From the IMG/VR virus record IMGVR_UViG_3300042923_000331, positions 1 through 62,042 of that record: a stretch of 62,042 nt of DNA; one strand, written 5' to 3'. Each line of letters opens with the position of its first letter. Within the stretch, counting starts at the first letter, position 1. The DNA is from a virus. The position numbers and the translations under genes are program-made. Below are positions 22,307 to 62,042 of the stretch, piece after piece. The notes under the pieces were generated by a model. The model was not told where the DNA came from and searched no databases. It was given only the letters and a program-made list of their open reading frames with translations.

Positions 22307-22405
22307 TTGACAATAATATCGTATTATAGTAATATGCAAGTGTAAGCGGTCGCTCCGCTTGCATCTTTCGTTTAAAGCCGCTCGGTTCGCTCCGGCGGTT
22401 TTTTT
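22307..22405 (+). ncRNA. Candidate plus-strand small RNA with near-consensus promoter and terminator
   Basis: Plus strand: -35 TTGACA (22307-22312), 17-base spacer, -10 TAATAT (22330-22335). About 65 bases follow with hairpin AAGCGG/CCGCTT (22344-22360) and a second GC-rich hairpin (22378-22398) ending in seven T. No open frame inside. In a genome coded otherwise on the minus strand this looks like a small RNA. The promoter spacer contains a palindrome ATAATA-TCG-TATTAT. Confidence 0.45.
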
Positions 22406-22997
22406 ATTGTGCTTCAAAGTCGTTATAAGCTGCTATTACTTTTTTGCTGTAGGAGCTTTCTGTTATTCCTTGAACCCACTTTTTTTGTGCACCAGCTTCG
22501 CCATGGTTGTATGCCATTAAAGCCAAATGCAAATCCTCATATTTCATTAAATCGCTTAACATCAAAATTCCAGCTTCTATATTTCCTCTTGTTGTCATTA
22601 CGTCTACGCCTATTTTTTTTAGCCATCCATGGTTGCATTCGTTTATTTGCATTATTCCATAGTCGCTTGTTTTGCTTACGGTTTCTGTATTAAAACCACT
22701 TTCTATCTGCATTACTGCTAGTATTAAATTATAGGGCACACCGTATTCTTTGCACTTTTCATATGTATATGTTTGTAGTTCCTCTGATAAAGGAATATTT
22801 TTTATGTATGCTGGCGGCTTTACTTCTGCCGTCCGCTCTGCTTCGATATCCGGATTGAGTGTTAGTTCAATCGCCGGCATATCTTTCGTTAAAATCGATT
22901 TTGGCGTTCCATGCGGTACCGTTACGGCTTGTCCTAAAGTTTCTATATTTAATGCCGCTATGATAGCGGCAAATAACAAAACTTTTCTTGCTTTCAT
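22404..22997 (-). CDS. Secreted lytic transglycosylase (SLT / VirB1-like)
   Basis: 197 residues from the ATG at 22997 (GAGGTACAAAAG). A signal peptide (MKARKVLLFAAIIAALNIET) is followed by a proline-rich stretch and an SLT domain with catalytic glutamate in AVMQIESGF, then DYGIMQINECNHGW and LALMAYNHGE. It cuts peptidoglycan locally. It could help DNA entry, lysis or, given the VirB4-like ATPase in this genome, a wall-spanning secretion complex. Confidence 0.85.
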   Translation of the reverse strand: MKARKVLLFAAIIAALNIETLGQAVTVPHGTPKSILTKDMPAIELTLNPDIEAERTAEVKPPAYIKNIPLSEELQTYTYEKCKEYGVPYNLILAVMQIESGFNTETVSKTSDYGIMQINECNHGWLKKIGVDVMTTRGNIEAGILMLSDLMKYEDLHLALMAYNHGEAGAQKKWVQGITESSYSKKVIAAYNDFEAQ

Positions 22998-23048
22998 CTT
23001 TTGTACCTCGGTTCGTTTTTTATGCGTCACTCCGCTTGCTCTTTCGTA

Positions 23049-23370: not shown

Positions 23371-23805
23371 TTATTTATGTTTGTATATTGTTACATTCAC
23401 ATCCTGCATTACTTCTTCGATGGTGGCTTCTACTTCGTCCCAATTTCCGCCGGCTATGCCGCAGCTTAATTTGTATGGTAAAGCCACACTCATGTTGTTT
23501 TGTTTTGCAAAATCCGCCAGCTGCTTCAAGGCTTTTTTTAATTCGTGTAATCTATAATCGGCGCCCGGTTGAAATTGTCCGAATATGTTTGCTATAATTT
23601 TTCCTTTATCTTTTACAAAATACGTTGTGCCTAACATGGCTGTGGCTACTATTGCTTCGCAGCAATTTTTATAATACTTGCCTGCTTTTTCGTATTTTTC
23701 GAATATATCGCCGGCAAGTCCACCGGCGATTCCAAAACAGTTTGTTTGGTGACCGATTATATCTTCGGTCGCGTTTAATATATTACCAATTTTATATATT
23801 ATCAT
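23371..23805 (-). CDS. Macrodomain protein (TARG1/Poa1-like)
   Basis: 144 residues. The ligand loops are NCFGIAGGLAGDIFEKY and PYKLSCGIAGGNWDEV, the paired ADP-ribose-binding loops of the TARG1/ALC1-like macrodomains. These bind or remove ADP-ribose or its derivatives. Last gene of the amidoligase operon, overlapping the cyclotransferase by four bases; the phage also encodes two ADP-ribosyltransferase-like proteins. Confidence 0.88.
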   Translation of the reverse strand: MIIYKIGNILNATEDIIGHQTNCFGIAGGLAGDIFEKYEKAGKYYKNCCEAIVATAMLGTTYFVKDKGKIIANIFGQFQPGADYRLHELKKALKQLADFAKQNNMSVALPYKLSCGIAGGNWDEVEATIEEVMQDVNVTIYKHK

Positions 23806-24317
23806 TTAGCCCTCCTAATAAAATTACTATATTCGTCTAGTGTTACGTATTTACATTTAACTCCGTTTCTTTTTTGTGTAGTTGATTTTTTTACACCCTC
23901 TACTAGCGGCGATATGTCCCAGCCAGCCGTTTCGTATCCTGCAGCTATTACGTTATAATAGTATTCTGATGGTGCTCCAAGGTTCCCATAATTCATTATA
24001 TATATCATTACTTTTTCGCCGTCTATGTCTATATATTCTTTGCGGTAAAGGTAAGGGTATCCCTCGTAAGCGTCTAAGTTTATTTCGTCTTTTGCTGATA
24101 CTTCCCATATTAGAATCGGTACGTTACAGCCTTTTTTTGGCTCTACGGTCGCTACAGCTCCGCCGCTTGAGCTTCTGCCGGTTGTTCTAAATAAAAGTTC
24201 GTAATCTTTTAATTCTGTCGCTCTGACGATTCTCGCGTCCGGGCATCTTCTTTCCATTTGTGGTAAATTTAAGTTGCTTCCGTATGCGGCATATAGTTTT
24301 CTAGTATTCTTTTTCAT
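23802..24317 (-). CDS. Gamma-glutamylcyclotransferase-like (AIG2/GGCT) protein
   Basis: 171 residues from the ATG at 24317 (GGGAGGAATTAC). KLYAAYGSNLNLPQMERRCP is the diagnostic YGSN substrate loop, and the catalytic glutamate sits in LDAYEGYPYLYRKEYI. Such enzymes release a 5-oxoproline-type cyclised product from gamma-glutamyl compounds. Here it pairs with an amidoligase, suggesting making and trimming of a gamma-glutamyl or similar amide link. Confidence 0.9.
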   Translation of the reverse strand: MKKNTRKLYAAYGSNLNLPQMERRCPDARIVRATELKDYELLFRTTGRSSSGGAVATVEPKKGCNVPILIWEVSAKDEINLDAYEGYPYLYRKEYIDIDGEKVMIYIMNYGNLGAPSEYYYNVIAAGYETAGWDISPLVEGVKKSTTQKRNGVKCKYVTLDEYSNFIRRAK

Positions 24318-24330
24318 TGTAATTCCTCCC

Positions 24331-24771
24331 TTATATTCTTTCGCCTGCAAATCTGCAGCCGGTATATTTCCATGTTCCGTTTATTTTTTGTAGCGTCATG
24401 TATGTTCCACGCCATTTTCCGTTTGCGTCCTCTTTATGTGAGTACGGCTCGCCTATTTGTAGCAAGTCTTTTTCTATTGTTCTTGGTGGCATTATCTCTA
24501 AGAAATATTCGTACATTTCTAAATCTACGTCGTCGCCCTCTTGCAAATAGTCGCTTAAATTCTGTTTGCTCTCTTCCCAGCCTTTATATGTTTTAGTATG
24601 CCTTTGGCTAAAAGTTTCCATCCATTCTACAAGTAAGCTTCTTGCTTCTTTATCGCCTATATTAAAAGCTTTTTCTATATAAGGGCTTGCTCCGAACATG
24701 TTTGTTGCTCCGGACTCTCTTAGTTTGTCTAAAAACTCGAATACTTTTTCTTTGTCTATTTCTTTATTCAT
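24331..24771 (-). CDS. Unknown protein of the amidoligase operon (146 aa), DUF1419-like C-terminus
   Basis: The N-terminal FLDKLRESGATNMFGASPYI block is shared by many phage accessory proteins. The C-terminal part (YFLEIMPPRTIEKDLLQIGE, then PYSH) resembles DUF1419 proteins of plasmids. Located between amidoligase and cyclotransferase in one transcript. Role unknown; might specify substrate. Confidence 0.65.
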   Translation of the reverse strand: MNKEIDKEKVFEFLDKLRESGATNMFGASPYIEKAFNIGDKEARSLLVEWMETFSQRHTKTYKGWEESKQNLSDYLQEGDDVDLEMYEYFLEIMPPRTIEKDLLQIGEPYSHKEDANGKWRGTYMTLQKINGTWKYTGCRFAGERI

Positions 24772-24795: not shown

Positions 24796-25788
24796 TTATG
24801 CCACCCCTATTGTATTATTATTTATTGTTACTGCTGCTGCAGTTGTTATCTCGTCTTTTTTCTTGTTTCTGTTTTGGTAGCTTGCGTATGTGTTTGGGTC
24901 GTGTCTCCAAGCTGCGTTTCCGGTCAAGTTTGCTAGTAGGTGGTCGCGTGTCGTTTTGAATTCGTCACCTATCATTCCTAGTGTTAGCAGCCAGCATCTA
25001 AATGCGTATTTGTCGTTGTCTGTTATCGGCTTTTGTGCTTTTGCTCTCTTCTGGTTTATTGCCTGCGCACTCATTGCTAGTGAAAGGTTTATATATGCTT
25101 TTATTTTGCCGGCGTGTAAGGTTCCGTTGTACATTCTGAATTCTATTGTTCTTTTGCTTCCGCTACGTTGCCAAATGTTATGCAAGTTTAGCATTCTATA
25201 TCTTGAGTGGTTGTAATGGTCGGTTCTGTTATATTCGTTTCCCTCGTACCAAAGGTCGGCAAGTTCATCGTCTGTTACGGCTTTTTTCTCGCCTAGTTTT
25301 TTTACGAATGTTAATTCTGTTTTCTTGCAGTAGCTTATGCGGTTACGCTTTATTTTAAGGCTTTTTTCAAGCAAATCCTCTTTACTGTACATTATGTTTA
25401 CTAGGTTTTTTACTGTTTGCGGTGTGTGGTATGTGCTATAGTCTACATGTACGTGTATTCCGCAAAGGTCGTTTGCTCTTGCTCCGGCTGCTTTTAAATT
25501 TCTTACTATCTGTTGCAATGTTTCTATGTCTTTGTACTGTAGCGGCGGCGTTACTAGCTCGCAGTTTGTTGGGTCGTTTCTAAGGTTGCTTAAGCTTGAG
25601 TCGCTCTCTATCTTCCACGTTCTTCCCTCGCCGTCTATTATTCCTCTTTCGTCTAAGTATCCTGTCATTCTGTGTGCGCTAGTTCCAAAAAAATCTGCTA
25701 CTACTTGCGCTGCGTTTACTCTTGTTATTCCTACAAATTCTACCTCTACTCCGAATCCTTGTTTTGTTATAAGCTCTTTATTTGTCAT
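24796..25788 (-). CDS. Amidoligase_2 family enzyme (glutamine-synthetase fold)
   Basis: 330 residues. Motifs of the COOH-NH2 ligase family: GFGVEVEFVGI (metal-binding glutamates), WKIESDSSL, NCELVTPPL, GIHVHVD and TIEFRMYNGTLH. Members join carboxyl and amino groups using ATP and are predicted to make peptide tags or small modified amides in phages and plasmids. First gene of a four-gene operon behind the operator-promoter at 25847-25875. Confidence 0.9.
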   Translation of the reverse strand: MTNKELITKQGFGVEVEFVGITRVNAAQVVADFFGTSAHRMTGYLDERGIIDGEGRTWKIESDSSLSNLRNDPTNCELVTPPLQYKDIETLQQIVRNLKAAGARANDLCGIHVHVDYSTYHTPQTVKNLVNIMYSKEDLLEKSLKIKRNRISYCKKTELTFVKKLGEKKAVTDDELADLWYEGNEYNRTDHYNHSRYRMLNLHNIWQRSGSKRTIEFRMYNGTLHAGKIKAYINLSLAMSAQAINQKRAKAQKPITDNDKYAFRCWLLTLGMIGDEFKTTRDHLLANLTGNAAWRHDPNTYASYQNRNKKKDEITTAAAVTINNNTIGVA

Positions 25789-26882: not shown

Positions 26883-26908
26883 ATAAAGCGCCCTCTTTTG
26901 GCGCTTAA
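26883..26908 (-). terminator. Terminator of the VirB4-like operon
   Basis: AAGCGCC, loop, GGGCGCTT then TATTTTTATT on the minus strand, overlapping the stop codon of the ATPase gene. Confidence 0.75.
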
Positions 26909-29151
26909 ATTGGATTTGGCAGTTCTGTAATAAACTTTTCGAATCCGGTTGTAGCTTTTATTAGGTTGAGCGAATGGTACCGCTTCAAGTTAAGCAAATC
27001 CTGCAGCTCGTATGGTTGCAAATCTTCTTTTAGCTCCTCATAATTCTTTTTATCAGTGCTCTGCAGCAACATGTAGCTGGCGCCGCTGGCTTTTAGTGCT
27101 TCCCGGATGGTGTCTATTTGGCTTAAATAATGAGCTGAAAATATGAATTTTAATTGGAATTTTCCGGCTTGGACTAATATATCTTTTAATAAAAATTCAG
27201 CCGTCGGAGCTTGGAATATCTCGTCTAGTATCACATGGCATCGGTTCGGCTTTGTTGCTCTCCCACCTCTTAGCTGGCTAGCAAGCCATATCTTACTTAT
27301 AAAAAAAGTTGCTAGAATATTTTTATGTGCCTGTGTCGGGAATTTATCTTCCGGAATCTTTATTAATATTACTTTTCCCCTGCTTATTTCTTCTGCAAAG
27401 TTTATATTTTCGTCCATGGTCTTATTAAACATAAGCTTCAGCTTTATATCTTCCGTCAATAGGTTTATTCTGTCCATGGCGTATTCGATTTTTGATGTTT
27501 TGGTGTCTATTATTTCGCCGCTCCTCTTGTCGTATTCGTCCATGTCCTTTAGGTTATATATATCATCCTGCAAATATTCTACAAGCTCTGCCGGGATAAG
27601 GCTTATATATTCTGCTCTTTTCCGGTAGTCGGATAAGCACTCTATTACGTTTCTTAAGCTCATATTTTTGTTTATAAACACTACATTGCCGGCGCTAGCT
27701 AAACCTCTACGCATTCTACTTGTAAGCGGCATATCCGGATTTATGGCGTTTAGGAAAGCAAGCATTAGCTGCGTCTGCATGTTTGCAATTTCTAGGAGCT
27801 CATATTTGTCTTTTGCGTTATAACTGTTAACTTCATTAAAAGCAAAGCTTTGTCTTTGGCTGGCTTCGCTTAAGTCTATAGAAATCAATTTGTTTGATGG
27901 TGTTACTCTTTCTATATCTGCGGAAAGCTCACAGTTTTTTACAAAATCAATCACAATCAAGCTTTCGCCTTTTCTTATAACATCATGTGCATAGTTAGCA
28001 AAGAATGTACTTTTACCGGCTCTTTGTGCTCCTAAAACACACAATCCGAGGTTTGCTAAGTTTGGGTCTGCGCTCATGGTGGCTCTTACTCTATTTCCTT
28101 TGTAAGTTGCAGCTCCTAAATTAATATATCCTTGTAGCAGCTCTTCCGGGATAACTGTTTCTAATGTGTTTATATGCTCTATATGATATCTTTCTAAAAG
28201 CTCTCTTCCTGCAAGTGCTATAAAATTTCCACACTCTTTAATACTCATTTTATTAACCTCCGCTCCTATATTTAAAGCTCCATGGTTAAATATTTTAAAA
28301 GCCTTTTCTTTCAAATAATTATCGTCATCTATGCTCCTAAAACTATTTGCTAATGACTTTATATTGTTTAGTGATTCTATCCGTCTATTGCTTTCACTTA
28401 TCAATGCTATTTGCGTATTTAAAATTGCAGCTGACGCCTTTAATTGTGTTTTATGCGAAAGTTCTTTTTGCTTTGGTGTATTTACTTGACCGCTGGTGTT
28501 GAATAGGTTTATTAGGCTGTAAGCTTCGTTAAAAATGCTTTTCGCTACGTATGTAATGTTTACTTTGTTTCGGTCTATCGGTGCTCCGCTTTCATATTTA
28601 TTTATAGTGTTCTTATATGCTGCTCTCCATAAATGTTGGCTCGTTGGTATAAAATTATAAAATATCCCGGTACGGTCGCTATCCTGCAGGACGTCAATTA
28701 TATTTAAATTATTGTTTAACAGCTCGTTGTCTCTTCTATCAACTTCTAGTGATAAAGCGTCCTCTTTTGCATATACTAACTGCTTGTAAATTGCTTTGTC
28801 GCTAAACGATGGTAGTTTTTCCGCGTCTAGTACGGTTACACTTCCCCACGCTCTTCCGATTGCTTCTTTTAAAATGCTCTTTTGTTTTTCTGCTACTATG
28901 AAATAGAAATCTACTTGCTTTTTCGTTATGTATATAAAAAATGCTGTTTTGCATGGTGCTTCAAATCGTATCAGCTGCGGCACTTCAAAGCTTAATACTT
29001 CTTTGTAATTTTCAAACGTAAAACGGCTAATTAAAGGCTTATACGTTGATTGTATTGCTTGCGCTATCTTGTACGTTTCATTATTTCTTGCGCTGGTTGC
29101 TGGTATTACTTTCAAAATCTTATATTCCGGCTTTATTACTTCAAATTTCAT
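26905..29151 (-). CDS. VirB4/HerA-like secretion or DNA-translocation ATPase
   Basis: 748 residues. Walker A is LGAQRAGKSTFF near residues 370-380, Walker B is CHVILDEIF near 637-645, with a following FSAHYLSQID sensor-type segment. The N-terminal 350 residues show no known domain but resemble the variable half of VirB4/TraE-type ATPases. Such ATPases drive DNA or protein transfer in conjugation. Two small membrane proteins and a ParM module lie directly upstream. A phage-genome copy is unusual; HerA-type function in plasmid maintenance is an alternative. Confidence 0.75.
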   Translation of the reverse strand: MKFEVIKPEYKILKVIPATSARNNETYKIAQAIQSTYKPLISRFTFENYKEVLSFEVPQLIRFEAPCKTAFFIYITKKQVDFYFIVAEKQKSILKEAIGRAWGSVTVLDAEKLPSFSDKAIYKQLVYAKEDALSLEVDRRDNELLNNNLNIIDVLQDSDRTGIFYNFIPTSQHLWRAAYKNTINKYESGAPIDRNKVNITYVAKSIFNEAYSLINLFNTSGQVNTPKQKELSHKTQLKASAAILNTQIALISESNRRIESLNNIKSLANSFRSIDDDNYLKEKAFKIFNHGALNIGAEVNKMSIKECGNFIALAGRELLERYHIEHINTLETVIPEELLQGYINLGAATYKGNRVRATMSADPNLANLGLCVLGAQRAGKSTFFANYAHDVIRKGESLIVIDFVKNCELSADIERVTPSNKLISIDLSEASQRQSFAFNEVNSYNAKDKYELLEIANMQTQLMLAFLNAINPDMPLTSRMRRGLASAGNVVFINKNMSLRNVIECLSDYRKRAEYISLIPAELVEYLQDDIYNLKDMDEYDKRSGEIIDTKTSKIEYAMDRINLLTEDIKLKLMFNKTMDENINFAEEISRGKVILIKIPEDKFPTQAHKNILATFFISKIWLASQLRGGRATKPNRCHVILDEIFQAPTAEFLLKDILVQAGKFQLKFIFSAHYLSQIDTIREALKASGASYMLLQSTDKKNYEELKEDLQPYELQDLLNLKRYHSLNLIKATTGFEKFITELPNPI

Positions 29152-29161
29152 TGTAGCCCTC

Positions 29162-29344
29162 CTATATTTCTAGTAGAAACATATATACTACTAACCCTAA
29201 CCAAATGTATTTTTTAGTGTCAAATCCTAACACCGCCAAAACTATTGAAATCATGCAGACGTATATGCATATTAAGTATCCTGCATTTTTCATGAAATTA
29301 TATACGTCGACTATAAATTCTATAAATTCTCCCAATCTTATCAC
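29162..29344 (-). CDS. Small membrane protein (60 aa), VirB3-like position
   Basis: Two membrane helices, GYLICIYVCMISIVLAVLG and YIWLGLVVYMFLL. It overlaps the upstream pilin-like gene by four bases and is 10 bases before the VirB4-like ATPase. Size and location match VirB3/TrbD-type proteins of conjugation clusters, but the sequence alone does not prove that. Confidence 0.6.
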   Translation of the reverse strand: MIRLGEFIEFIVDVYNFMKNAGYLICIYVCMISIVLAVLGFDTKKYIWLGLVVYMFLLEI

Positions 29345-29709
29345 CTGCCAAACATATTTTGAATTTCATCAAATGCTGTCGGTAGTAAATAAACGCCGGC
29401 GTATGCTAACAAGTATCCCATTAGATTTTTTTTAGCTGCTTGAATATCTCCGTTTATGCAAGCTTGAATTACTTCAAAAGCGCCCTTGAAAACTAATACT
29501 AGCTTTACTACTCCATCTGCCAATTTATAATATAAATTCATTCCTTTTCCCTCTGCGAAACCAGCTGACGCACCAAATGCTACAGAAATATTTAAAAAAA
29601 TCATCATCAAAAGAAAAATTTTTATTGTGTACTTGCATATTTCCGTTGTGTCGCGCATATTTTGGTAGAAAAACCGTCTACCAAAAACCTTAGACCCTTT
29701 ATGTGCCAT
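29341..29709 (-). CDS. VirB2/TrbC-like pilin-type membrane protein (122 aa)
   Basis: The ATG at 29709 follows a GGGGGGTG site. Two hydrophobic segments (IFLLMMIFLNISVAFGASAG, later MGYLLAYAGVYLLP) flank an alanine-containing potential cleavage region, and the amphipathic middle KLADGVVKLVLVFKGAFEVI resembles gram-positive VirB2/TrbC-like subunits. Position ahead of a VirB3-size protein and VirB4-like ATPase supports this. No other secretion gene is linked. Confidence 0.6.
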   Translation of the reverse strand: MAHKGSKVFGRRFFYQNMRDTTEICKYTIKIFLLMMIFLNISVAFGASAGFAEGKGMNLYYKLADGVVKLVLVFKGAFEVIQACINGDIQAAKKNLMGYLLAYAGVYLLPTAFDEIQNMFGR

Positions 29710-29711
29710 GA

Positions 29712-29891
29712 TTACACCCCCCATATTATGCTTGTTTCTACTTTTTCTGATTTCTTAACCCTCTCTAAAATCATAACGTCTCTTAAAATATCCTTAATAA
29801 ATGCGCTTTTTCCACTATGTATTTCTATCCATTCAAACAATTCTGCATCTTCCGGCTTGTTTTTAAAGCTTAGTACAATTGTCTTATTCAT
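29712..29891 (-). CDS. Second ribbon-helix-helix-like protein (59 aa), ParR paralogue
   Basis: ATG at 29891 after AGAGGGGGAACC, TAA at 29712. MNKTIVLSFKNKPEDAELFE, then a helix with SGKSAFIKDILRDVM parallels the ParR-like protein at 30463 (KKIILSFKEH, SGFIKDLLRE). Thus two related DNA-binding proteins flank this module, one after ParM and one before the secretion-like genes. It may regulate the secretion-like operon. Confidence 0.7.
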   Translation of the reverse strand: MNKTIVLSFKNKPEDAELFEWIEIHSGKSAFIKDILRDVMILERVKKSEKVETSIIWGV

Positions 29892-29973
29892 ATTGGTTCC
29901 CCCTCTATTTTGTTAGTTTTTATAATTTTATTATGAATTTTATAAAATATTCCTAAATTTAATAAAATTTAAC

Positions 29974-30010
29974 AAAAAAAGAACCGGACATTTTGTGTCC
30001 GGTTCTTTCT
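29974..30010 (-). terminator. Strong terminator between partition and secretion-like genes
   Basis: AAAGAACCGGACA, five-base loop, TGTCCGGTTCTTT followed by T runs on the minus strand: a 13-pair stem. It separates the ParM transcript from the ATPase operon. Confidence 0.85.
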
Positions 30011-30275
30011 AATCTCTAGGGTCAAATATTCCGTTTACGTATGCTTGATATTGCTCGTCGTTTCGCTTTTTTCTATTGGCTTCATTCTCTTCGACCACCA
30101 TTTCTTTTGTGTATCCGTTATACGTTATTTTGGCGCCGTCTACTCTCATAATTGTAAAACCTTGTATTTCTCCGCGCTCGTTTACGTCGTAATGCCTTGC
30201 CAAATCGTCATTTTGTGTGGTTCTTGAAAACATTCTAATTGTACTGTTTTGCGCTAATCTTGCTGTGTTTTTCAT
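30009..30275 (-). CDS. Hypothetical protein of the ParM operon (88 aa)
   Basis: Basic start (MKNTARLAQNSTIRMFSRTT), beta-rich middle (GFTIMRVDGAKITYNGYTKE) and charged end. Follows the ParR-like gene by 11 bases and precedes the strong terminator. Unknown; possibly an accessory segregation factor. Confidence 0.65.
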   Translation of the reverse strand: MKNTARLAQNSTIRMFSRTTQNDDLARHYDVNERGEIQGFTIMRVDGAKITYNGYTKEMVVEENEANRKKRNDEQYQAYVNGIFDPRD

Positions 30276-30286
30276 GGTTATCCCTC

Positions 30287-30463
30287 CTAAAAATCTATTA
30301 ATTTTATTCTTGGTGTTTCTTCTTTCTTTATAGCTCTTTTGCTTTTCATATCTTCTCTAAGCAAATCTTTTATAAATCCGCTATAATTCGATTTTTCTAA
30401 AAGGTAATTAAAAACGTCGTCGTCTTTGTGCTCTTTAAAGCTTAATATTATTTTCTTAGCCAT
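30287..30463 (-). CDS. ParR-like ribbon-helix-helix partition protein (58 aa)
   Basis: The ATG at 30463 has GAGGTGTGCGC in front. MAKKIILSFKEHKDDDVFNY plus KSNYSGFIKDLLREDMKS is the compact ribbon-helix-helix plan of ParR proteins, which bind centromere repeats and couple them to ParM filaments. It follows the ParM-like gene by 12 bases. No obvious repeat array for binding was seen close by. Confidence 0.7.
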   Translation of the reverse strand: MAKKIILSFKEHKDDDVFNYLLEKSNYSGFIKDLLREDMKSKRAIKKEETPRIKLIDF

Positions 30464-30475
30464 TGCGCACACCTC

Positions 30476-31354
30476 TTAAAATATCATTTCTGCTACTTTT
30501 TTAAAACCTATTGCATTACTATAAATATAGTTGTCTGCTAATATTGTCTTGTATCTTCTATTGAATGCGTTTTCGAATAATTTACCGCCGCCGCCTGTTA
30601 ATATAATCTGCTCCGTGCTCACAGGGTAATTCAATTCCAGCTCTCTGTTTATCTTTATAAAATTATCTCTTAAGGTTGCTTTTATAAAACTCAAATCAAT
30701 ATCAGCTCCGTCAACTTTCAAATATCCTTGCTGTATTATTTTTTCGGCGTGCTCATGGTCTATATTTAGCGCGTATTTATTATTTAAATATCTTGAAACG
30801 TCGCTGTATATATTTAATGTTCCTATTGCTAGCGTGCTATTATTCATAAGTTTTCCGGCTCTTATATAGCATATATCCGTCGTCCTGCCGCCTATATCTA
30901 CTATTATGCAATCTTTGTTGATGTTAAGTGAATAGTACGTCGCTAAACTTTCCGGGTATATTTCACACTCTTTGATTATTAGATTTCTCGGTTCATCATT
31001 TAGCTTTAAATTTTTAAATTTAAAGCTAAGTATGCGCTCTTTCAAATCTTCTTTATGTTCTTTAAATTGTCCGATTGGAAGCCCTAAAACCACACTATTG
31101 CATATATCTTTAGTTGATAAAAGAATAGCTGTTGTTAAAAGCGGAATTATATTAGTCTTTTTAGCTTTGTTTAGCATGGTTTCTATATTGCTTTCGCCAA
31201 TATAAAACACCTCACCGTTTAATTCCAGCTTTATTTTATTACCCATTATATTTTCTAGCGTTTCTACGGAGCTTTTAAAAATAACGTCCGGGCTTGCTTT
31301 TGTTGCATAATTTCCTACATCAATTCCAAGTATCAATTTTCTATCCCCTTTCAT
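30476..31354 (-). CDS. parM: ParM/StbA-like actin-family ATPase
   Basis: 292 residues with actin-fold motifs: phosphate 1 LILGIDVGNYATKA, phosphate 2 IIVDIGGRTTDICYI (near residue 150) and adenosine motif ILTGGGG (near 255). Filament-forming actins of this type push plasmid copies apart at division. Together with the absence of an integrase this supports a plasmid-like prophage. First gene of a three-gene transcript. Confidence 0.88.
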   Translation of the reverse strand: MKGDRKLILGIDVGNYATKASPDVIFKSSVETLENIMGNKIKLELNGEVFYIGESNIETMLNKAKKTNIIPLLTTAILLSTKDICNSVVLGLPIGQFKEHKEDLKERILSFKFKNLKLNDEPRNLIIKECEIYPESLATYYSLNINKDCIIVDIGGRTTDICYIRAGKLMNNSTLAIGTLNIYSDVSRYLNNKYALNIDHEHAEKIIQQGYLKVDGADIDLSFIKATLRDNFIKINRELELNYPVSTEQIILTGGGGKLFENAFNRRYKTILADNYIYSNAIGFKKVAEMIF

Positions 31355-31413
31355 ATTCTTTTACTTATTTATATGCGCTGCAGGATGAAAAGTTGACTAC
31401 TTTTTATATCTTT

Positions 31414-31563
31414 TTATGGTAAATTGGTAAATAAAACTTTTATATATCCGGTTGCTCCCCATACTAAGAATGCCGCCGAAGCGGCTCCAAGTATATTTTC
31501 AAAGCATTTCATTTTGTCCCATTTGTATTTCCTTTTAGCTTTTTTCATTTTAAAGTATTTCAT
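31414..31563 (-). CDS. Small membrane protein (49 aa)
   Basis: ATG at 31563 with AAGGGGGAC in front. Basic N-terminus (MKYFKMKKAKRKYKW) and one hydrophobic stretch (ILGAASAAFLVWGATGYI). It ends 60 bases before the ParM start. Could be a membrane anchor for the partition filament; speculative. Confidence 0.55.
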   Translation of the reverse strand: MKYFKMKKAKRKYKWDKMKCFENILGAASAAFLVWGATGYIKVLFTNLP

Positions 31564-31579
31564 GTTTAGTCCCCCTTAA

Positions 31580-31900
31580 TCAAAATTCATAAATCAAAGC
31601 GCTGCTGTTTATTGTTTCCGCCGGGATAACTTCCGGATATATATACGCTTTACATTTGAAAAATGCTTCGCTGTGGTCATATGAATAATCTAGCTTGCTT
31701 TTCTCTATGCTTTCGGTGTCAATTTCTATTACTATTAAGTCCTCAACTTTTTTCCCTCTGATTATTGGAAATTTTAGCGCGTTTTGTACTGAATCAGCAA
31801 AGTATATTACACCGTCGCACCCTGTTTTTAAACCGTTTTCTAGTATGCTGTCTAAATTCTTTTTTAATGTACTATGGTATAGCTTTTTTATTTCTATCAT
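31580..31900 (-). CDS. Small ADP-ribosyltransferase-like protein (106 aa)
   Basis: LYHSTLKKNLDSILENGLK, then GVIYFADS, is the opening of minimal ART folds: a histidine in YHST, a tyrosine in IYFADS and a later glutamate (HSEAFFKCK or PEVIPAE). KptA-, DarT- and PARP-like mini-transferases share this layout. Substrate unknown; the phage's macrodomain protein could reverse such marks. Confidence 0.6.
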   Translation of the reverse strand: MIEIKKLYHSTLKKNLDSILENGLKTGCDGVIYFADSVQNALKFPIIRGKKVEDLIVIEIDTESIEKSKLDYSYDHSEAFFKCKAYIYPEVIPAETINSSALIYEF

Positions 31901-33016: not shown

Positions 33017-33604
33017 TTATATGCTCCACTTTGCTACTTTTATAACCAAAGTGTCTAGATTTTTTGTAGTCTCACACGCTTTTATCCAAAACTCCGGTGT
33101 GTTTATTACATTCTTTTTCACTAAATAGCCTATTGCTTCCGGGTATGTGTCAATTTCTTTCTTTTCGATGGCTGCTTCTATATACTCTCTCGGGTCTACG
33201 CAGCGCATAAACACATTATAGTCTGTTTTGCATCGCTCCCAAAAATTCGGATAGCTGCAATGTCTTACTTCAAAATGTAAATGTGCTGCAGTTGAATCGC
33301 CGGTGTTTCCTGTATATCCTAAAAGCTGTCCGGCTTTTACTAGCTGTCCGGCTTTTACTGCGAAACCGTCTAAGTGTGCGTATAGAGTGCCCCATTTTCC
33401 ATGGTCTACTACTATGTATAAACCGTATCCACCCGGATTGTCTTTTGCTACTTGTACAATTCCGGCTTCTACTGCAAAGACCGGCGTTCCTATAGCTGCG
33501 CGCAAATCTACGCCGTTATGCCACCACATGTCTTTATATTCTCGAAAACCAAAATCGTATGTTATGTACATTATGTTTAATGGTGGATTTTTAAAAGCGA
33601 TCAT
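33017..33604 (-). CDS. M23 (LytM-type) endolysin
   Basis: 195 residues. Zinc ligands in HNGVDLRAAIGTP, then YAHLDGF and the classical HLHFEV near residue 118, so it is a peptidoglycan cross-bridge peptidase. The C-terminal 60 residues (EAIGYLVKKNVINTPEFWIK) are probably a wall-targeting or XkdX-type tail. It follows the holin by an overlapping ATG/stop, forming the lysis pair. Confidence 0.92.
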   Translation of the reverse strand: MIAFKNPPLNIMYITYDFGFREYKDMWWHNGVDLRAAIGTPVFAVEAGIVQVAKDNPGGYGLYIVVDHGKWGTLYAHLDGFAVKAGQLVKAGQLLGYTGNTGDSTAAHLHFEVRHCSYPNFWERCKTDYNVFMRCVDPREYIEAAIEKKEIDTYPEAIGYLVKKNVINTPEFWIKACETTKNLDTLVIKVAKWSI

Positions 33605-34047
33605 TTTTGAACCTCTTCGTTTTCGGCTCTTTGGTTTAATACCGATAAAGCTTTTTGTATTATAGACGGTATTGGTATACCCATTAAGCCGGCATTCTCT
33701 GTAATGCTTAATGTTTCGTTAACTATATATGCTATTATTGCAGCGTTTCTTATTACTTGTGTTCCACTTACTTTGTCTAATTGAGCTGCAACTAATACTA
33801 TTAATAGTGTTCCGCCTTTTTTGCAAAGCCCTTTCCAACCGGCAAGCGATTCTAATTTGCCGGTTTCTGTTTTCTTTGATTTGTTGAATACTCCGGCTAC
33901 TACTAGCCCTGTTATGTAGTCTATTCCCATGAAAAGCACGAGCGTTTGTAGCGCCATGTCCCACCCTCCGAGTAAATTCGCTATAATGCTGCCTGCTACC
34001 CCTAGTACAGCTAATATGCTTGCTTTTATATTAGTTACATGTTGCAT
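33601..34047 (-). CDS. Phage holin (holin family 4 / TcdE-like)
   Basis: 148 residues with three hydrophobic segments: ASILAVLGVAGSIIANLLGG, LQTLVLFMGIDYITGLVVAG and AAIIAYIVNETLSITENAG. LFMGIDYITGL and NETLSITENAGLMG are diagnostic of this holin family, which opens the membrane for endolysin. Start coincides with the stop of the subtilase-SLH gene. Confidence 0.92.
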   Translation of the reverse strand: MQHVTNIKASILAVLGVAGSIIANLLGGWDMALQTLVLFMGIDYITGLVVAGVFNKSKKTETGKLESLAGWKGLCKKGGTLLIVLVAAQLDKVSGTQVIRNAAIIAYIVNETLSITENAGLMGIPIPSIIQKALSVLNQRAENEEVQK

Positions 34048-35042
34048 TACTTTTCCCCCTTAAGTTCGTTTGTTATTTTTTCATAAATTCTTCTTGATGT
34101 TGCTGCTTCTTCAGCTCTAGTAACTGTTTTGTGTGGGTCGAAAGTATTATCGCCATCGCCCTGCATTAAACCTTTTTCTGTGCAAAATTTTACGTCGTCA
34201 TAAAACCAATCTGTTTCCTTTACGTCGGTAAAATCCATATTTTCCTCCTCTTCTTTTGGTGGTTGCGGTTTATTATTTCTTAATTCATCAAGCTTTTGTA
34301 ATCTGTCCGTTAATGGTAACACCGGCAATCCGTAACCATAACTGTTATCTTTGTCTTTTTCGCCTAAATCAATGCTTATTGATTTTAATATTTCTACACA
34401 TTCTGCTTGTGTAAAATCGCCATATCTTTGCAAAAGCAAAGCTACTTTTGATGCCAATCCCGGAGAAGCTGCGGAAGTTCCCACACCCCTTGCCATAAAT
34501 GACATAAAGTCTAATTCTTCTCCTATTGCACTATAGTACATTCTTTTTATTGTGCCATTTTCCTTAATTTGAACAGAACCTACGGCTATTGCGGTGTCAT
34601 CTTTGGTGTATACTCCTCTTACGCCGTTTGCTCCGTCATTTCCTGCAGAACAAAAGAATATTACACCTTTTCGCTTTTGTATATCTTTGAAATAATTCAA
34701 AGTTGCTTTTGTCCCACTTCCGGCGAATGATTTTGTTACAATTTTTATGTTGTATTTATCAATAGCTTTCTCAAAATCAATTTTTTCGCCGTCAATAGTT
34801 AAATACATTTCGATTACTTGGTCGCCTTTTGTTCTGCCGCTTATGGTGCTATTTATTACAGTTGCTTCCGGTGCGTAATCTTTAATTACTTTAGTTGTCA
34901 TTTTTCCGTGGTCTGATAAGCTTTCACCATTTAAAATAACAATTCCTTTACCCTTGTAACCTAAATCGTGATAGTTTTTTATGTGATTGAATTGTATTTG
35001 CCGTTTGAAATCGGCTTCTAGTAATTCTGCATATGTTGTCAC
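34047..35042 (-). CDS. Subtilisin-like protease with C-terminal SLH domain
   Basis: 331 residues. S8 peptidase elements: a histidine region SLSDHGKMTT, oxyanion asparagine in FFCSAGNDGANG and nucleophile GVGTSAASPG near 205. The usual first aspartate of the family (D-T-G) is replaced by GES in VILNGESLSDHG. A proline/glutamate linker precedes one SLH domain (WFYDDVKFCTEKGLM, then DNTFDPHKTVTRAEE), which binds cell-wall polymers. No signal peptide, so it probably acts as a virion or lysis-time enzyme at the host S-layer. Confidence 0.85.
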   Translation of the reverse strand: MTTYAELLEADFKRQIQFNHIKNYHDLGYKGKGIVILNGESLSDHGKMTTKVIKDYAPEATVINSTISGRTKGDQVIEMYLTIDGEKIDFEKAIDKYNIKIVTKSFAGSGTKATLNYFKDIQKRKGVIFFCSAGNDGANGVRGVYTKDDTAIAVGSVQIKENGTIKRMYYSAIGEELDFMSFMARGVGTSAASPGLASKVALLLQRYGDFTQAECVEILKSISIDLGEKDKDNSYGYGLPVLPLTDRLQKLDELRNNKPQPPKEEEENMDFTDVKETDWFYDDVKFCTEKGLMQGDGDNTFDPHKTVTRAEEAATSRRIYEKITNELKGEK

Positions 35043-61688: not shown

Positions 61689-62042
61689 TCGGTTATTTCT
61701 CCTAACCCTACAATCTCCCAATCTTCACTTAAAATATCGGTCTGCGAAGCCAGCCATGGCACAAGTCCGTTGTCTGCCGTTTTCATTGCTATATACGGCA
61801 GCAGCGTTCCGTCTATGTCTATTAATTCTGCTACATGATATTGATTGTTGTTGTATGGCTCGATATATCTTAGCCACATATTTTTACCGTTCCAGCCTTT
61901 TCTTGCTACTTTATGCCCTTTTTTAAGTGCTTCTATCGCAAGTCCAAACGTCATTTTGTCTGTTTGTCTGTACGCCTTTTCGAATGCTGCTTTAGGCGAC
62001 CAACTCTCATAACCGTCCTCGTATTTTACTTTATATCCGGGA
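61685..62042 (-). CDS. DUF2829 / Tad2-like anti-Thoeris protein, C-terminal part (continues from base 237)
   Basis: The DUF2829 core runs MTFGLAIEALKKGHKVARKG, then GKNMWLRYIEPYNNNQYHVA, and ends MKTADNGLVPWLASQTDILS-type followed by DWEIV. An in-frame ATG at 61954 would make an 89-residue core, but the complete gene starts at 237 across the junction. Tad2 homologues bind the Thoeris signal glycocyclic-ADPR (family knowledge). This copy lies in the late operon beside the terminases. Confidence 0.85.
   Translation of the reverse strand, partial: PGYKVKYEDGYESWSPKAAFEKAYRQTDKMTFGLAIEALKKGHKVARKGWNGKNMWLRYIEPYNNNQYHVAELIDIDGTLLPYIAMKTADNGLVPWLASQTDILSEDWEIVGLGEITE
61916..62042. repeat. Terminal direct repeat, right copy
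   Basis: Identical to 1-127; see the left copy. Removing one copy gives a 61,915-bp circle in which the Tad2-like gene is intact. Confidence 0.9.

What the first reader, a model, noticed from the sequence alone, without database searches (positions are those of the whole stretch)
26905..31354. ParM-type partition genes joined to a VirB4/HerA-like ATPase and two small membrane proteins
Transcription order is ParM-like actin, ribbon-helix-helix protein, unknown, terminator, second ribbon-helix-helix paralogue, pilin-like two-helix protein, 60-aa membrane protein and VirB4-like ATPase with Walker A/B. The last three match VirB2-VirB3-VirB4 in size and order. A phage carrying a minimal secretion or conjugation-like kit beside its segregation system would be unusual, and a VirB1-like transglycosylase lies elsewhere in the genome.
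Basis: partly seen in the sequence, partly recalled or inferred. Interest (0 to 1): 0.78.

Follow-up and report, generated by a model that had tools for sequence, protein, structure and literature searches.

The report
Phage-borne mini secretion-pilus operon
A phage of Gram-positive bacteria carries, beside its DNA-segregation genes, a small operon that looks like the pilin and motor core of a bacterial conjugation machine, and the same core recurs in dozens of other Firmicutes phages and prophages, so these viruses may build a membrane-spanning machine whose job nobody has tested.

Summary
The genes are as described. Hairpin terminators suggest two transcription units: ParM-RHH-unknown (31354-30009), and RHH-pilin-like-small membrane protein-ATPase (29891-26905).

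The ATPase is not HerA- or FtsK-first. Its AlphaFold model (pLDDT 89.8) matches VirB4 best (Z 28.1; DndH/DptH-type 26.4, TrwB 26.2, HerA 24.1, FtsK 16.7), and its motor-domain profile matches VirB4 profiles. Its N-terminal domain has no detectable VirB4 sequence signal. The 127-aa protein has a signal-peptide-like N-terminus plus a two-helix mature part. Relatives beside sister ATPases pass Pfam's cut-offs for TrbC/VirB2 (one) and T4SS_pilin (one). The 60-aa protein is VirB3-like only in size and position; in 13 of 57 loci its counterpart is fused to an M23 cell-wall peptidase.

It is not unique: 53 of 50,697 phage records, and 57 distinct loci with enough flank, of which 55 carry the pilin-like gene nearby. 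ParM is optional (21 of 57). VirB6, VirB8, coupling-protein and relaxase families were not found in this genome, so it is not a complete T4SS. A 2018 SPP1 paper already proposed a "trans-membrane translocon" for the same genes.

Best reading: a minimal VirB2/VirB4-type pilus or translocation machine; function untested.

The parts
30476..31354 (-). ParM-like actin ATPase (292 aa)
   Evidence: Pfam ALP_N 1.6e-16; PHROG 691 partition protein; ParM structures. Upstream of the ATPase in 21 of 57 loci
30287..30472 (-). RHH1, ribbon-helix-helix-like, ParR-like by position (61 aa; start probably the internal ATG with a better ribosome site)
   Evidence: PHROG 4223 1.4e-7; paralogue of RHH2
30009..30275 (-). 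88-aa protein, function unknown
   Evidence: no Pfam hit up to E 1
29976..30010 (-). intrinsic-terminator-like hairpin with T run that separates the two transcription units
   Evidence: -21.4 kcal/mol, z -6.98 for 29970-30012; not listed by the consensus scan
29712..29891 (-). RHH2, ribbon-helix-helix-like protein (59 aa), first gene of the pilin-ATPase unit
   Evidence: a relative lies upstream of the ATPase in 43 of 57 loci, including 27 of the 36 without ParM
29341..29724 (-). VirB2-like prepilin candidate (127 aa; a second in-frame ATG five codons in has a better ribosome site): signal-peptide-like N-terminus, then about 70-75 aa with two helices
   Evidence: AF2 helices 16-49, 60-90, 94-126; family in 55 of 57 loci; sister proteins pass TrbC and T4SS_pilin cut-offs
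29162..29344 (-). small membrane protein (60 aa) in the VirB3 position; counterparts elsewhere are fused to an M23 peptidase domain
   Evidence: one hydrophobic segment 23-41; counterpart in 41 of 57 loci, M23-fused in 13 of 57; pN/pS 0.29
26905..29151 (-). VirB4-like hexameric-motor-type ATPase (748 aa), PHROG 5156
   Evidence: PHROG 5156 2.4e-96 full length; AF2 pLDDT 89.8; Foldseek and VIA best match VirB4
26886..26906 (-). terminator-like hairpin after the ATPase gene
22404..23030 (-). lytic transglycosylase (SLT) with N-terminal hydrophobic segment; possible wall-opening partner, link not shown
   Evidence: Pfam SLT 4.2e-19; no relative in the flanks of the other 68 distinct loci

Best explanation
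RHH2, the 127-aa prepilin-like protein, the 60-aa membrane protein and the ATPase form one operon for a minimal, membrane-anchored VirB2/VirB4-type machine. Proposed mechanism: (1) the prepilin is inserted in the membrane and cut by signal peptidase, leaving a two-helix subunit of about 70 residues; (2) the small membrane protein holds the cytosolic hexameric ATPase at the membrane, in the way VirB3 partners VirB4; (3) ATP hydrolysis moves the pilins (or a substrate) out, making a pilus-like or pore-like structure through the envelope; (4) a peptidoglycan hydrolase (M23 fused to the small protein in relatives; here perhaps a separate enzyme) opens the wall; (5) the neighbouring, optional ParM-RHH unit segregates the phage DNA and may tether it to the machine. 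Shown here: gene order, homology of the motor domain to VirB4, homology of relatives to VirB2/TrbC pilins, conserved catalytic residues, purifying selection, recurrence. Inferred: cleavage, complex formation, steps 2-5, and what is moved.
For: ATPase fold: VirB4 4ag5 Z 28.1 over 336 residues, DndH/DptH-type 26.4, TrwB 26.2, HerA 24.1, FtsK 16.7; the first 11 Foldseek rows are R388 TrwK/VirB4 chains, E 5.5e-14 at best. Motor profile vs 16 VirB4 sequences P 98, E 2.8e-13. Pfam TrwB_AAD_bind in 31 of 60 members, best 4.3e-7. P-loop G379/K380, D643 and E644 invariant in 60 of 60. Pilin-like gene nearby in 55 of 57 loci; SPO1 gp29.1 and a gene in L068 are weak further candidates. TrbC cut-off passed by the L122 protein, whose neighbour is a family ATPase (1.3e-89); T4SS_pilin cut-off passed in L061. 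Small membrane gene in 41 of 57, M23-fused in 13 of 57. R388 has the same order and similar sizes, trwL-trwM-trwK 101-104-823 aa. Clustering of 939 neighbouring ORFs without prior choice recovers these families. Precedent for step 3: VirB4/VirB11 drive VirB2 extraction (PMC12624023, passages); for step 5: R1 ParM binds the VirB4-like TraC (PMC4949242, abstract).
Against: The N-terminal ATPase domain has no sequence signal to VirB4 (P 0.2), and the full-length structural match has rmsd 11 A. The window pilin has no Pfam hit, TrwL does not match its profile, and a fold search of its model gives nothing useful. The 60-aa protein shows no VirB3 similarity. No VirB6/TrbL, VirB8, coupling-protein (PF02534) or relaxase (PF03432) family in the genome, and none of the 105 chosen minus-strand ORFs has more than two predicted membrane segments. 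In SPP1 the corresponding 31.2 and 32 are non-essential in the laboratory (PMC6316719). The operon often sits beside lysis genes, which leaves room for a lysis or exclusion role.
Confidence: 0.6

Rival explanations
1. Superinfection exclusion or envelope remodelling: the pilin-like and small membrane proteins sit in the membrane of the infected or lysogenic cell and, powered by the ATPase, block or eject incoming phage DNA.
For: Around the 57 loci, endolysin (24 loci) and holin (6) families lie upstream and XRE-type repressors (43 loci) and integrases downstream or near, i.e. a position where lysogenic-conversion genes often sit (that last point is recalled). Early expression and non-essentiality of the SPP1 counterparts (PMC6316719). 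A FtsK/HerA-type motor could pump DNA.
Against: A signal-peptide-bearing VirB2-like pilin and an M23 wall peptidase are not expected of a simple exclusion protein.
Confidence: 0.2
2. DNA-segregation pump: the ATPase is a membrane-anchored HerA/FtsK-like DNA translocase that works with ParM-RHH to move phage genomes within the cell; the membrane proteins are only anchors.
For: ParM upstream in 21 of 57 loci; in the 32 loci with 3 kb on both sides, 11 upstream and 2 downstream. HerA Z 24.1 and HerA first in the sequence-profile search of solved structures, E 4.6e-5.
Against: 36 of 57 loci lack ParM while 55 of 57 keep the pilin gene; nearest sister pairs differ in ParM (WIN/L004, L019/L002); the operons are separated by a terminator-like hairpin; pumps of this kind need no processed pilin.
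Confidence: 0.1
3. Accessory lysis cassette: pilin-like and small membrane proteins are holin/antiholin-like and the M23-fused form is a membrane-anchored endolysin.
For: Lysis genes are frequent neighbours; 13 of 57 counterparts carry an M23 domain.
Against: The window has its own holin (33601-34047, Phage_holin_4_1 4.3e-37) and M23 enzyme (33017-33604); a large conserved VirB4-like motor has no known role in lysis; SPP1 31.2 and 32 are reported non-essential (PMC6316719).
Confidence: 0.06
4. Decaying fragment of a captured conjugative plasmid without function.
For: Only part of a T4SS gene set is present.
Against: Purifying selection, invariant catalytic residues in 60 of 60, and the same gene set across deep branches of the ATPase tree.
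Confidence: 0.03

Closest known systems
SPP1 gp31.1-gp31.2-gp32 (and phage GBK2 counterparts), proposed trans-membrane translocon, PMC6316719 (passages read)
   Same: Same order (membrane, membrane, ATPase) and exactly the sizes 120/105/836 aa of phage 049ML001 gp38-40, whose ATPase matches PHROG 5156 at 4e-287 and whose block aligns to GBK2 at 70%. The authors noted TrwB, VirB4 and FtsK similarity.
   Different: The passages name no VirB2-like pilin, signal peptide, M23 fusion or ParM link. SPP1 itself was not among my listed hits, so the link runs through sizes, order and GBK2.
R388 trwL-trwM-trwK (VirB2-VirB3-VirB4)
   Same: Gene order and sizes; best full-length structural match of the ATPase
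   Different: R388 also has further VirB proteins, coupling protein and relaxase; no sequence-level match of trwL or trwM to the phage proteins
Archaeal Ced/Ted DNA import systems (CedA1/TedC pilin, CedB/TedB ATPase, CedA/TedA channel), PMC9905601 (passages read)
   Same: Reduced system built on a VirB2-like pilin and a VirB4/HerA-like ATPase; TedC has a signal-peptidase site
   Different: Ced/Ted keep a VirB6-like channel; no such family found here
Monoderm (Gram-positive) conjugation systems such as pCF10
   Same: VirB4-like ATPase; a wall hydrolase
   Different: pCF10 has PrgI, a large lysozyme-type protein, coupling protein and relaxase; [quoted passage not shown]
HerA-type defence and repair ATPases (SIR2-HerA, DndH/DptH, MADS Mad8)
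   Same: Motor domain (mad8 3.9e-9)
   Different: Partners there are nucleases or NADases (recalled, and from the titles), not a pilin

Membership tests
VirB4 ATPase family | C-terminal RecA-like motor with Walker A/B and VirB4 fold | tested here: met
   VIA Z 28.1 to 4ag5; profile P 98, E 2.8e-13; Walker residues
VirB4 ATPase family | VirB4 N-terminal domain | tested here: inconclusive
   no sequence-profile signal, P 0.2; structural alignment runs over 5-748 but with rmsd 11 A
VirB2/TrbC pilin | Pfam TrbC or T4SS_pilin match | tested here: inconclusive
   window protein none; relatives L122 and L061 pass the cut-offs, L009 and TP-84 gp47 just below; profile link P 91 / 49.5
VirB2/TrbC pilin | cleavable signal peptide and two-helix mature subunit of about 70 residues | tested here: inconclusive
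   AxA at mature length 70-80 in 46 of 53, 0 of 1000 shuffles as high; a looser test did not discriminate; AF2 helices; cleavage itself not testable
VirB3 | VirB3/PrgI sequence similarity | tested here: inconclusive
   no VirB3 or PrgI among the 25 Pfam families shown for 50 members; TrwM no match
Type IV secretion system (complete) | VirB6-like channel, VirB8, coupling ATPase | tested here: not met
   PF04610, PF04335, PF02534: 0 matches at E<=1 in the genome; no ORF with three or more predicted membrane segments. Divergent forms could escape
Conjugative or mobilisable element | relaxase and oriT | tested here: not met
   PF03432: 0 matches; other relaxase families and oriT not tested
ParMRC partition system | actin-like ParM with adjacent DNA-binding ParR | tested here: met
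   RHH1 adjacent
ParMRC partition system | parC direct-repeat centromere | tested here: inconclusive
   no clear iteron array at 29700-31600; only two-copy repeats

The most novel reading that the evidence does not exclude
Tailed phages and prophages of Gram-positive bacteria carry a self-made, minimal conjugation-type apparatus (VirB2-like pilus or pore, VirB4-like motor, wall hydrolase) through which the phage genome, presented by ParM and an RHH protein, or a phage protein, passes directly from cell to cell without a virion; this would also be a case of VirB2-type pili in monoderm bacteria.
Probability: 0.15. Interest if true: 0.95.

Novelty: new variant of a known kind. Interest (0 to 1): 0.68.

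Why it matters
If right, virulent and temperate Firmicutes phages (SPO1, SPP1-like, TP-84, D6E, Paenibacillus and Clostridium prophages) share a reduced secretion-pilus core that has stayed an unlabelled ATPase (PHROG 5156, 'unknown function'). It would add phages to the places where T4SS parts were reduced to a core, as in archaeal Ced/Ted, it raises VirB2-type pili in monoderms, and it is directly testable in B. subtilis laboratory phages where part of the block is known to be dispensable.

Tried and rejected
Single-sequence profile comparisons with TrwK, PrgJ, TrwB, TrwL and TrwM were too weak to use (TrwK P 32, PrgJ P 0.6, TrwB P 50, TrwL and TrwM none); I then built a 16-sequence VirB4 set. 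A first hhalign run returned a full-length alignment, but separate domain runs showed that only the motor domain carries signal, so I do not use the full-length figure. Fold search of the 127-aa model: no Foldseek match with E<=0.001, VIA rows only generic helical bundles up to Z 7.6; VirB2 pilins are not listed there, which says nothing. My first AxA count (49 of 53) was not discriminating, since 86% of shuffled sequences also passed; the stricter test is. The first count of the small membrane gene (44) included pilins by mistake; corrected to 41 of 57. No parC-like repeat array. The transglycosylase as a conserved partner: no relative in the flanks of the other 68 distinct loci. Anti-phage defence: only a weak motor-domain match to mad8. 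No match of the block DNA in the plasmid collection; the protein matches in plasmids are three non-mobilizable records, one of them (A. dauci) with a phage morphogenesis gene. Tyrosine integrase: none found in the window; serine integrases and transposases not tested. Rows dropped before counts: 24 of 93 loci as near-copies (>=90% identity) and 12 of the remaining 69 for lack of 3 kb upstream. The ParM group table leaves 26 ungrouped rows out, so I use only sister-pair differences from it. In the genome searches with PHROG 5156 many weak hits look like general VirB4/HerA-like proteins, so the totals (56 of 291, 87 of 299) are not used as incidence.
Full report
What is there. The window is an IMG/VR virus record with a 127-bp terminal direct repeat, so probably a complete circularised phage genome of about 61.9 kb. 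It has a Mu-type portal and a terminase. The finding's genes all exist on the minus strand. From the hairpins I read two transcription units: ParM (31354-30476), RHH1 (30472-30287) and an 88-aa unknown (30275-30009), ended by a strong terminator-like hairpin; then RHH2 (29891-29712), a 127-aa protein (29724-29341), a 60-aa membrane protein (29344-29162) and a 748-aa ATPase (29151-26905), tightly packed and followed by a second hairpin. The coding sequences are under purifying selection against L004 (pN/pS 0.23-0.36). No transcription data are available, so the units are inferred.

The ATPase. Pfam gives only a sub-threshold AAA_14 match; PHROG 5156, 'unknown function', matches over the full length at 2.4e-96. 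tblastn finds 53 of 50,697 phage records (46 with at least 80% cover), mostly Bacillus, including SPO1 gp27.4, TP-84 and D6E, plus a Terrisporobacter phage. AlphaFold2 from a 60-row alignment gives pLDDT 89.8. Foldseek against the PDB puts R388 TrwK/VirB4 chains in the first eleven rows, E 5.5e-14 at best, ahead of HerA and TrwB. VIA-align ranks VirB4 4ag5 first (Z 28.1, 3.4 A over 336 residues), then DndH/DptH-type 26.4, TrwB 26.2, HerA 24.1, FtsK 16.7. Against a 16-sequence VirB4 set the motor domain matches with P 98 and E 2.8e-13, while residues 1-340 do not match (P 0.2) and reversed controls give P 0.1. A profile of 12 members against PDB sequences ranked HerA first (4.6e-5), which I count against a pure VirB4 label. 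Of 60 members, 31 match Pfam TrwB_AAD_bind, best 4.3e-7. I conclude: VirB4/TrwB/HerA class, VirB4 closest in fold; family membership open because of the N-terminal domain.

The pilin-like protein. The window protein has no Pfam match. Its family, extended by iterative profiles inside the loci, plus a second group found in Bacillus-type phages, occurs near the ATPase in 55 of 57 loci; the two others are SPO1, where gp29.1 is a candidate 2 kb upstream (6.4e-7 to the second group's profile), and L068, whose 171-aa gene gives TrbC at 0.0027. The two groups are joined by hhalign (P 91, E 1e-6 over 121 columns one way; P 49.5, E 1.7e-4 the other). In the second group, L122 passes Pfam's TrbC/VirB2 cut-off (29.5 vs 27.9 bits) and its neighbour is a family ATPase (1.3e-89); L061 passes T4SS_pilin (28.3 vs 26.6). 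TP-84 gp47 is just below (23.7 bits). An AxA site leaving a mature protein of 70-80 residues is found in 46 of 53 sequences; shuffling within blocks of ten gives mean 34.3, s.d. 2.8, maximum 43 in 1000. AlphaFold2 gives an N-terminal helix and a confident two-helix hairpin. A direct comparison with R388 TrwL found nothing.

The small membrane protein. It is VirB3-like only in size and place; neither Pfam (first 25 families of 50 members) nor TrwM supports homology. In 41 of 57 loci a relative sits between pilin and ATPase, and in 13 of 57 it carries an N-terminal M23 peptidase domain (Pfam M23 in 12 of 50 alignment members, best 3.7e-29). This ties a cell-wall hydrolase to the module in those lineages. 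In the window the only comparable enzymes I found are an M23 protein in the lysis region (33017-33604) and the SLT protein (22404-23030), neither shown to belong.

Context across relatives. Searches gave 46 and 20 IMG/VR loci and 15 bacterial-genome loci, the latter all in Bacillota as far as titles say. Of 93 loci including the window, 69 are distinct at 90% identity, and 57 of these have at least 3 kb upstream. In the 57: ParM upstream in 21, RHH in 43 (27 of the 36 without ParM), small membrane gene in 41. Where 3 kb is held on both sides (32 loci) ParM is upstream in 11 and downstream in 2. Sister pairs differ in ParM: WIN has it and L004 does not, L019 has it and L002 does not. So ParM is a recurrent but optional neighbour, and RHH belongs to the pilin-ATPase unit as well as to ParM, which explains the two paralogues. 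Clustering all 939 neighbouring ORFs of the 57 loci without prior choice gave endolysins (24 loci), ParM (24), RHH (21 and 11), pilin (38), small membrane (39), XRE regulators (43), integrases (6 and 5) and holins (6), and no multi-membrane-pass family that could be VirB6 (family names there are my reading of the sequences). The whole window genome gave no match to TrbL/VirB6, VirB8, T4SS-DNA_transf or Relaxase families, nor to tyrosine integrase. The Alicyclobacillus plasmid that carries the block also carries a phage morphogenesis gene.

How it probably works. A prepilin, a membrane anchor and a VirB4-type motor suffice on paper for pilin extraction: the 2025 review states that VirB2 is extracted with lipid, that VirB3 interacts strongly with VirB4, and that VirB4 and VirB11 supply the force (PMC12624023, passages). 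Archaeal Ced/Ted show that a VirB2-like pilin and a VirB4-like ATPase, with a VirB6-like channel, can serve DNA import (PMC9905601, passages). [quoted passage not shown] Which substrate, if any, the phage machine moves is unknown; a pilus for cell contact, DNA or protein transfer, and superinfection exclusion all remain open.

What is in print. [quoted passage not shown] The idea of a translocon is therefore not new. In the searches I made (listings, plus passages of the papers named) I did not see the VirB2-like pilin, the M23 fusion, the ParM/RHH association or the spread described here; the library lacks most subscription papers. The T4SS nomenclature review PMC12857230 has no occurrence of 'phage' at a word start.

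Verdict. I rate it a new variant of a known kind, with a function that can be tested in laboratory phages.

Noticed in passing
31580-31900 (-): 106-aa protein with weak similarity to RNA 2'-phosphotransferase Tpt1/KptA (Pfam 3.1e-5, below cut-off) just upstream of ParM.
   Followed up: no
24796-25788 and 23802-24350 (-): Amidoligase (8.2e-61) and gamma-glutamylcyclotransferase-like (6.5e-8) genes lie downstream of the ATPase; phage 031MP004 also has an amidoligase (gp40) and a gamma-glutamyl cyclotransferase (gp44) upstream of its ATPase gp51. Possible peptide-modifying pair.
   Followed up: partly
34047-35042 (-): Subtilase with an S-layer-homology domain beside the holin and M23 genes; a close relative lies in L004.
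   Followed up: no
23371-23805 (-): Macro-domain-like protein (1.7e-4, at the cut-off).
   Followed up: no
1-127 and 61916-62042: 127-bp terminal direct repeat, so the record is probably a circularised complete genome.
   Followed up: yes
L007 3352-3867 and 8654-9478 (phage SPO1): SPO1 gp29.1 looks like the missing pilin (signal-like start, 6.4e-7 to the Bacillus-type pilin profile), and gp27.3 next to the ATPase is a Replic_Relax protein (2.9e-12).
   Followed up: partly
BFVD G3MBM1 and G3MBM2 (Bacillus phage G gp155, gp156): Two consecutively numbered phage G proteins match the ATPase model (4.5e-12 and 5.8e-40); a second, different motor beside the VirB4-like one.
   Followed up: no
   Followed up: no
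L010 / NZ_CP104066.1: The A. dauci plasmid carries the block twice, as an apparent near-dimer.
   Followed up: no
window 26905-29151: Motor domain resembles Mad8 of the MADS defence system (3.9e-9), probably through shared VirB4/HerA ancestry.
   Followed up: no
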